Notes under the pieces: generated by a model | What the model saw: the letters and a program-made list of their open reading frames with translations, nothing else | What the model was told of the DNA's origin: nothing | The model's database searches: none | Source of the DNA: Sulfurimonas sp. | Lineage (GTDB): Bacteria; Campylobacterota; Campylobacteria; Campylobacterales; Sulfurimonadaceae | DNA: 34,891 nucleotides | NCBI GenBank assembly: GCA_027060825.1 | Contig: JALSWC010000216.1 | Span: 1 to 34,891 of the forward strand | Reading direction: 5' to 3' | Translations under genes and position numbers: made by a program | In this document: positions 18,405 to 19,732 of the stretch, in pieces | Layout: the number at the start of each line of letters is the position of its first letter | How positions within the stretch are numbered: the stretch's first letter is position 1

Positions 18405-18407
18405 GTG

Positions 18408-19535
18408 CTAAACACAAACTCTATATCTTACATTTCTACCTTGAGTTCCCTCTACATGCTCAATACACTTCAAATCTAACAGCTCATTTATATCTCTTGA
18501 AGCTGTACTTGGAGTCGTATCTGCAATTACAATATACTTCTTTTTACTCAAGTCACCCTTGAAGTTCTCAACTCCAATATCTAATATTTTATTTAAAACT
18601 TTTGTTTGTCTAGCATTGAGATTACTCTCTTTATGCTTATCCCAAAACTTTGTTTTTTCAGTAATGTATCTTAACTTATTTTTCGTATCCATAAGGGCAG
18701 AATAGAGTATCTCTAAAAACCACTCACACCAAATGGTAATATCTAAATGCTTATCACTCTTCCTAACATACCCTGTTGTACTCTCCAATGCTTTATAGTA
18801 TCCTTTTCTATCATTATTAATTGCATTTGACATAGAGTAGAGTTTTGAAATCTTGGAATTTTCTATTTTTGAGAGGACCAAATCAGTTATGGCTCTAGTA
18901 ATTCTACCATTTCCATCATCAAATGGATGAATAATTACAAACCATAAGTGTGCAATAGCTGCTTTTAGTAAACTTGTTTCACAATTATTAAACCATGTCA
19001 AAAAATTATCCATTTCATTTTCTAACATAACTCGTGGAGGAGCTTCATAGTATGTTGTTTCTCTTCCTGCCATACCTGAAACCACTTCCATTCTCTCTTC
19101 GCCTCTAAAAGTTGCCACATTGATTTTAACATAGCCACTGTAACCTTTTGGAAAAAGTGCATTATGCCAGCCAAAGAGTCTCTCTAGTGTTAAATCTTTT
19201 TCATAGTTTGTATTTGCATCAATTAATACTTCAATAAGGTAGTCTGTTGATGTATCTATTTTTGAATAATCAACATTTTGAAACCCTAGCTTCCTTTTTA
19301 TAGAAGCCTTCACACTATCACGATTTAATATCTCACCCTCTATCGCAGAAGTACTTATTGCTTCACTTTCTAATGCTTCTAATTGGCTTTGAGCAACACT
19401 ATCTTCACTCATAAAGTTACTCATAGCGATTAAATACCCCTGTTCAAGAGATATTTTATGTATCAGGATTTCTAATCTTTTTAAATCATAAGTAAAGTTT
19501 GGGTAATCTTCTTGCTCCCATATCCATCTTTTCAT
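18408..19535 (-). CDS. Fic family protein with DUF4172 N-terminus and C-terminal winged helix
   Basis: This 375-residue protein has three parts. The N-terminus (MKRWIWEQEDYPNFTYDLKR) is of the DUF4172 type and carries an inhibitory-helix motif Thr62-SAI-Glu66-Gly67 (S/TxxxEG/N), which marks a class II Fic protein. The Fic core has the complete active site HPFDDGNGR at 203-211 with catalytic His203. Residues about 310-375 form a winged helix (TPSTASRDINELLDLKCIEH). Fic proteins usually transfer AMP to hydroxyls of target proteins; the target here is unknown. No separate antitoxin is visible, consistent with built-in inhibition. It is a single gene inserted among housekeeping genes, so it is probably accessory. 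The DNA-binding end and promoter palindromes suggest autoregulation, which is inference. Confidence 0.92.
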   Translation of the reverse strand: MKRWIWEQEDYPNFTYDLKRLEILIHKISLEQGYLIAMSNFMSEDSVAQSQLEALESEAISTSAIEGEILNRDSVKASIKRKLGFQNVDYSKIDTSTDYLIEVLIDANTNYEKDLTLERLFGWHNALFPKGYSGYVKINVATFRGEERMEVVSGMAGRETTYYEAPPRVMLENEMDNFLTWFNNCETSLLKAAIAHLWFVIIHPFDDGNGRITRAITDLVLSKIENSKISKLYSMSNAINNDRKGYYKALESTTGYVRKSDKHLDITIWCEWFLEILYSALMDTKNKLRYITEKTKFWDKHKESNLNARQTKVLNKILDIGVENFKGDLSKKKYIVIADTTPSTASRDINELLDLKCIEHVEGTQGRNVRYRVCV

Positions 19536-19567
19536 ACTCTACCTTTATTCTTTTTCTCTAGTGAGGC

Positions 19568-19617
19568 GATTAATTTAGTTAATCATACCATATATGAAGT
19601 GATTATAACATATAATC
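19568..19617 (-). promoter_or_regulatory. Tandem GATTA-N7-TAATC operator-like palindromes over the fic promoter
   Basis: Two perfect palindromes lie 33-82 bases upstream of the fic start: GATTAATTTAGTTAATC at 19568-19584 and GATTATAACATATAATC at 19601-19617. They share the consensus GATTA-N7-TAATC, and their centres are 33 bases apart, about three helical turns. On the minus strand a perfect -10, TATAAT, lies inside the second (complement of 19602-19607), and TGGTATGAT, an extended -10, overlaps the first. This layout fits a repressor that covers the promoter. The regulator could be the Fic protein's own winged helix; that is inference. Confidence 0.6.
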
Positions 19618-19683
19618 GTTTCATTTTTTATTTTTAAATCTCTACAAGGTGCATTTATAAATACTCTTATTTTCAGCCACCAT

Positions 19684-19711
19684 TTGATACAATTGTATTA
19701 AATAATATATT
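19684..19711 (+). promoter_or_regulatory. Candidate sigma-70 promoter of yggS
   Basis: TTGATA at 19684-19689 and TATATT at 19706-19711 are spaced 16 bases apart, ending 21 bases before the yggS ATG. A 12-base perfect palindrome, ATACAATTGTAT (19687-19698), overlaps the -35. AGGA precedes the ATG at a normal distance. Confidence 0.45.
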
Positions 19712-19732
19712 AATAGATTAGTAGGATAAAAA

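What the first reader, a model, noticed from the sequence alone, without database searches (positions are those of the whole stretch)
19568..19617. Tandem GATTA-N7-TAATC operators covering the fic promoter
Two palindromes with identical half sites and identical spacing lie with centres 33 bases apart, and each overlaps a good -10 of the fic gene. Two matching half-site sets at a helical-phase distance are unlikely by chance even in AT-rich DNA. The Fic protein has a C-terminal winged helix, so direct autorepression by a Fic enzyme is a testable idea.
Basis: partly seen in the sequence, partly recalled or inferred. Interest (0 to 1): 0.6.

Follow-up and report, generated by a model that had tools for sequence, protein, structure and literature searches.

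The report
Fic enzyme's self-targeting tandem DNA operators
The two palindromes in front of this gene for a protein-modifying enzyme (Fic) are very probably the docking sites through which the enzyme's own DNA-binding tail shuts its gene down, and the same kind of site, with its letters changing in step with the tail, sits in front of related enzymes across several bacterial phyla and in some archaea.

Summary
The two GATTA-N7-TAATC palindromes are real, at the stated coordinates, but they are only the cores of a larger element. The unit is a 29-bp palindrome, TGNNNN-GATTA-N7-TAATC-NNNNCA. Two units (19562-19590, 19595-19623), 4 bp apart and 33 bp centre to centre, cover both candidate -10 boxes of fic. 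In the window's own genome no other place matches with fewer than two mismatches. The architecture recurs upstream of DUF4172-Fic-winged-helix genes: 62 of 94 distinct upstreams from several phyla, plasmids and phage contigs, against a mean of 2.5 in control windows (29 of 43 against 1.2 in a set not used to find it). The third base of the half-site follows residue 343, at the N-terminus of the predicted recognition helix: Asp-C, Ala/Pro/Leu/Ile-A, Thr-G, Met-T (150 of 152 genes; 44 of 44 half-sites in a follow-up set). This ties the sites to the Fic protein itself. Autorepression is the best reading. It has an experimental precedent in a distant relative (Yersinia CccR), but the operator differs, and I found no published operator for this subfamily. 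fic with its operators is a self-contained insert between rseP and yggS. Binding and repression were not tested.

The parts
19595..19623 (-). Operator unit 1 (upstream), TGAAAC-GATTA-TATGTTA-TAATC-ACTTCA on the minus strand
   Evidence: Perfect match to the family 29-bp pattern, one of two in the genome; conserved in the closest relatives
19562..19590 (-). Operator unit 2 (proximal), TGGTAT-GATTA-ACTAAAT-TAATC-GCCTCA on the minus strand
   Evidence: conserved in relatives
19602..19607 (-). Candidate extended -10 (TGT-TATAAT) inside unit 1
   Evidence: Sequence; a -10-like TATAAT sits at the same place in the unit in several Gastranaerophilales relatives
19582..19587 (-). Candidate extended -10 (TGG-TATGAT) inside unit 2, overlapping the outer half-site
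   Evidence: Sequence; conserved in many Campylobacterota orthologs
18408..19535 (-). fic gene, 375 aa: DUF4172 + Fic + C-terminal winged helix
   Evidence: AlphaFold2 mean pLDDT 91.6; best fold match 8CIL
19281..19526 (-). DUF4172 domain (residues 4-85)
   Evidence: PF13776, E 8.3e-25; holds the dimer interface in CbFic2 (PMC10628234)
19335..19352 (-). Inhibitory helix motif TSAIEG (residues 62-67), class II Fic
   Evidence: Sequence; I65 and E66 invariant in the alignments
18903..18929 (-). Fic motif HPFDDGNGR (residues 203-211), intact
18417..18626 (-). C-terminal winged helix (about residues 304-373)
   Evidence: Secondary structure of the model H308-320, H331-338, H342-354, E358-360, E371-373
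18474..18512 (-). Predicted recognition helix (residues 342-354); residue 343 tracks base 3 of the half-site
18405..19732 (.). Insert carrying fic and its operators between rseP and yggS
   Evidence: rseP and yggS lie about 6-20 bp apart in most same-genus genomes examined that show both genes

Best explanation
The palindromes are the operators of the fic gene, bound by the Fic protein's own C-terminal winged helix, so that the enzyme represses its own transcription. Proposed working: a Fic homodimer joined through DUF4172 spans one 29-bp unit. Its two recognition helices read the outer TGNNNN hexamers, whose centres lie about 22 bp (two helical turns, roughly 75 A) apart. The inner GATTA/TAATC positions are a less variable core. 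Two units 33 bp apart lie on nearly the same face of the helix, so two dimers could bind cooperatively and cover both extended -10 boxes. Shown here: the sequence element, its family-wide conservation, its fixed spacing, its covariation with recognition-helix residues, its near-absence elsewhere in the genome, and its travel with the gene. Inferred: physical binding, dimer geometry, repression, cooperativity.
For: Half-site spacing is sharply fixed: a facing gap of 7 bp in 41/42 Campylobacterota and 19/21 distant upstreams, with a diverging gap of 4 as second peak. Holdout of 43 upstreams not used to define it: span 29 in 29 against 1.2 expected, every other span 15-47 in at most 5. 62/94 against a mean of 2.5 (maximum 7) in random windows of the same loci. 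Second units recur at 33/34 bp and 52-55 bp, about two turns apart. Residue 343 against base 3: D-C 95/96, A-A 44/44, P-A 10/10, T-G 55/58 half-sites; 44/44 correct in the further fic loci where the rule makes a prediction; 150/152 genes concordant, with 5 changes of the predicted class and 5 of the base on the tree. Residue 343 is at the N-terminus of the predicted recognition helix. In five relatives most hits of the operator pattern lie directly upstream of fic genes, including a second diverged paralog. Precedents: CccR represses its own promoter through a palindromic site, shown by lacZ fusion, EMSA and footprint, with recognition helices 70.2 A apart (PMC9755527); CbFic2, the closest solved relative, binds DNA through this domain (PMC10628234).
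Against: No binding or expression data. The tree holds only about 5 independent changes of specificity, so the phylogenetically independent test cannot reach significance (best median p 0.125). 13 of 54 further loci had no standard unit, although several carry a 6-bp-gap variant. One plasmid gene (L153, Ala343) has TGCAGA half-sites against the rule. The window's own protein has Ser343, an ambiguous class (8 A, 10 G). CccR's published site (AGATAATCAT-N26-ATGATAATCT) has a different layout. The promoter has no good -35.
Confidence: 0.85

Rival explanations
1. A different regulator of the host, not the Fic protein, binds the palindromes.
For: Binding was not measured; palindromic sites with TG...CA ends are typical of many regulators.
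Against: Bases covary with the recognition helix of the adjacent fic gene. The element moves with fic across phyla, plasmids and phage contigs. No other place in the genome matches with fewer than two mismatches.
Confidence: 0.05
2. Fic binds the sites, but mainly to activate transcription or to hold the enzyme in one catalytic state on DNA, rather than to repress.
For: CbFic2 changes from AMPylation to deAMPylation on DNA (PMC10628234); the promoter has weak -35 elements, as activated promoters can.
Against: Both units sit on top of the -10 boxes, which is a repressor position; CccR represses (PMC9755527).
Confidence: 0.08
3. The palindromes act in RNA, as a hairpin in the fic leader or a terminator.
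For: Perfect arms could fold if transcribed.
Against: No terminator-like site was found; the units overlap the -10 boxes; the bases follow the DNA-binding helix rather than pairing alone.
Confidence: 0.01
4. Chance repeats in AT-rich DNA.
For: With one mismatch the short motif is at chance level in the window.
Against: Genome-wide rarity and family-wide conservation with fixed spacing.
Confidence: 0.01

Closest known systems
CccR of Yersinia pseudotuberculosis (PDB 7XUX; PMC9755527)
   Same: Class II Fic enzyme with C-terminal HTH that represses its own gene through a palindromic site near the -35/-10.
   Different: Remote in sequence (E 1.3e-7; 17-18% identity in the fold match). Its footprint is 46 nt with 10-bp boxes 26 bp apart, not tandem 29-bp units. 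It is a secreted T6SS effector; nothing here indicates secretion.
CbFic2 of Coxiella burnetii (PDB 8CIL; PMC10628234)
   Same: Closest solved relative (E 6.5e-95; rank 1 by fold, 41% identity): DUF4172, TSAIEG, HPFDDGNGR, winged helix, DNA binding shown.
   Different: Only random DNA was tested and no operator is given; it targets host histones. Its own upstream region was deliberately not read here.
SoFic of Shewanella (3EQX; anti-phage Sofic, PMC12249575)
   Same: Fic core with C-terminal winged helix, class II.
   Different: NCBIfam SoFic score 40 against a cut-off of 550. Sofic is countered by a small protein encoded downstream; in the window there is no room for one on that side (rseP ends 3 bp from the fic stop).

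Membership tests
DUF4172-Fic-winged-helix subfamily (CbFic2-like) | DUF4172 domain N-terminal to Fic | tested here: met
   PF13776 87.3 bits, cut-off 25
DUF4172-Fic-winged-helix subfamily (CbFic2-like) | Intact Fic motif and class II inhibitory motif | tested here: met
   HPFDDGNGR 203-211, TSAIEG 62-67
DUF4172-Fic-winged-helix subfamily (CbFic2-like) | C-terminal winged helix | tested here: met
   AlphaFold2 model and 8CIL match
DUF4172-Fic-winged-helix subfamily (CbFic2-like) | DNA-dependent change between AMPylation and deAMPylation | not testable with these tools
   Reported for CbFic2 only (PMC10628234)
Autorepressing Fic (works like CccR) | Palindromic site in its own promoter, matched to its own DNA-binding helix | tested here: met
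Autorepressing Fic (works like CccR) | Direct binding and repression | not testable with these tools
   Needs EMSA and reporter assay
Autorepressing Fic (works like CccR) | CccR operator AGATAATCAT-N26-ATGATAATCT | tested here: not met
   The window shows two 29-bp units with a different half-site
SoFic equivalog (NF046030) | Score above the curated cut-off | tested here: not met
   40 against 550
Class I Fic toxin-antitoxin module | Adjacent small antitoxin gene bearing the inhibitory helix | tested here: not met
   The inhibitory helix is in the protein itself; the neighbours are rseP, 3 bp away, and yggS

The most novel reading that the evidence does not exclude
The operator is an allosteric switch as well as a repressor site: a Fic dimer parked on its own promoter is held in the deAMPylating (silent) state, and enzyme in excess of the operators, or released from them, becomes an AMPylase. 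The promoter would then act as the antitoxin of a one-gene toxin-antitoxin module, with cognate operators defined by a short recognition code.
Probability: 0.2. Interest if true: 0.85.

Novelty: new variant of a known kind. Interest (0 to 1): 0.6.

Why it matters
The authors of the CbFic2 work left open whether this subfamily recognises a specific DNA sequence. The present result predicts one, a 29-bp palindrome, for the subfamily across several bacterial phyla and some archaea, gives a simple residue-to-base rule that can be tested with point mutants, and suggests that self-repression is the rule for these enzymes rather than a peculiarity of CccR. It also offers a ready DNA ligand for studying how DNA controls Fic catalysis, for which the CbFic2 study used only random DNA.

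Tried and rejected
The short GATTA-N7-TAATC motif as the specificity element: not specific with one mismatch, and GATTA is the less variable part. A general inverted-repeat scan without half-site anchoring gave broad, uninformative peaks, so the anchored spacing spectrum was used instead. The CccR operator as a template: different layout. A regulon beyond fic: no match with fewer than two mismatches elsewhere in the genome. The first run of the tree test used wrong helix indices and was replaced; the first holdout run failed to load the phage loci and was replaced. Two extra viral scans returned mostly contigs already held and were not analysed further.

Full report
Observation. They lie between fic (18408-19535, minus strand) and a divergent yggS-type gene (19733, plus strand). 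The short motif with one mismatch is at chance level in the window. Exact copies are rare in the 1.8-Mb genome (4, two of them here). Reading relatives showed that the palindrome runs further outward: TGNNNN-GATTA-N7-TAATC-NNNNCA, 29 bp. This longer pattern has two perfect places in the genome, both here, and no others with fewer than two mismatches.

The gene. The protein has DUF4172 (PF13776) and Fic domains, an intact HPFDDGNGR motif and the class II inhibitory motif TSAIEG. AlphaFold2 gives a confident model (mean pLDDT 91.6) with a C-terminal winged helix whose recognition helix is residues 342-354. Its nearest solved relative by sequence and by fold is CbFic2, 8CIL; CccR (7XUX) and SoFic are far more distant.

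Conservation. Upstream sequences of relatives were collected from 228 family genomes, GTDB contigs, plasmids and viral contigs. With a half-site TGNNNNGAWWA, the facing pair occurs at a gap of 7 bp in 41/42 Campylobacterota and 19/21 distant upstreams, and the diverging pair at a gap of 4. Because the half-site was read from those sequences, 43 further upstreams served as a holdout, scored only for TGNNNN and its complement at every span from 15 to 47: span 29 was found in 29, expected 1.2 in dinucleotide shuffles, and no other span in more than 5. Over all 94 distinct upstreams the figure is 62, against a mean of 2.5 and a maximum of 7 in random windows of the same loci. Second units recur 33-34 or 52-55 bp away, about two helical turns apart, which fits binding on one face of the helix (inference).

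Matching of site and protein. The base after TG differs between groups and follows residue 343, at the N-terminus of the recognition helix: Asp with C (95/96 half-sites), Ala and Pro with A (44/44, 10/10), Thr with G (55/58). The rule was then applied to 54 fic loci fetched afterwards, and the 44 half-sites for which it makes a prediction were all right; Met-T and Leu/Ile/Val-A appeared as new classes there. Most of these predictions were 'A', so this test is less varied than its size suggests. On a tree built without the winged helix, 150 of 152 genes are concordant for the A class, with five changes of predicted class and five of base, but so few independent changes cannot give a significant sign test; the Leu/Ile/Val and Met classes were added to the rule, so their agreement is descriptive. 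Ser343, which the window itself has, is ambiguous (8 A, 10 G half-sites). A finer correlation, His342-Asp343 with TGCGT against other Asp343 proteins without it (8/8 and 32/33 genes), rests on a single change in the tree. In five relatives most hits of the operator pattern lie at fic genes, including a second, 40% identical paralog with its own perfect palindrome TGATACGATTA-N7-TAATCGTATCA.

Mobility. In the same-genus genomes examined rseP and yggS are usually adjacent, within about 6-20 bp, for example in L122 with 96% identical RseP. The window therefore carries an insert of about 1.3 kb that brings the enzyme and its operators together.

Mechanism. The likeliest reading is autorepression by a Fic dimer. 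Bases 4 and 26 of the unit are 22 bp, roughly 75 A, apart (computed from B-DNA rise); the recognition helices of the CccR dimer are reported 70.2 A apart (PMC9755527). Both units cover extended -10 boxes. CccR is an experimental precedent for autorepression, and CbFic2 for DNA binding by this very architecture and for a change of catalytic direction on DNA (PMC10628234). Binding, repression, cooperativity and any effect on catalysis are inferred for the window.

Novelty. Autorepression by a Fic enzyme is known. A subfamily-wide 29-bp operator with a residue-to-base rule was not found in the papers searched (this library lacks most subscription journals), and the authors of the CbFic2 study name a specific binding sequence as an open question. 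I rate it a new variant of a known kind.

Noticed in passing
window 18405-19732; L122, L131, L148: fic is an insertion between rseP and yggS, which are adjacent in most same-genus relatives examined; its stop codon ends 3 bp from the rseP stop.
   Followed up: yes
L380 (G227:C168) and L006 (G227:C76): One genome holds two diverged DUF4172 fic genes with different operators (TGATAC against TGGAAT/TGAAAC half-sites), suggesting insulated, non-cross-regulating copies.
   Followed up: partly
L382-L411 (LATAKRD/IATAKRD group): A Campylobacterota subgroup uses a 6-bp gap (28-bp unit) with unlike arms TGATAC and TGAGCT, as if the unit had become asymmetric.
   Followed up: partly
L153 upstream of 1195: Bradyrhizobium plasmid fic with Gln342-Ala343 has TGCAGA half-sites, an exception to the Ala-A rule.
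   Followed up: no
G000:C55:5047-5075, C206:414-442, C187:31-59: Three similar two-mismatch palindromes elsewhere in the genome share the core GATTAAGATA and look like copies of one repeat rather than fic operators.
   Followed up: no
window 19684-19711: A sigma-70-like promoter (TTGATA-16-TATATT, plus strand) in front of yggS lies inside the inserted stretch, so the insertion may have given yggS a new promoter.
   Followed up: no
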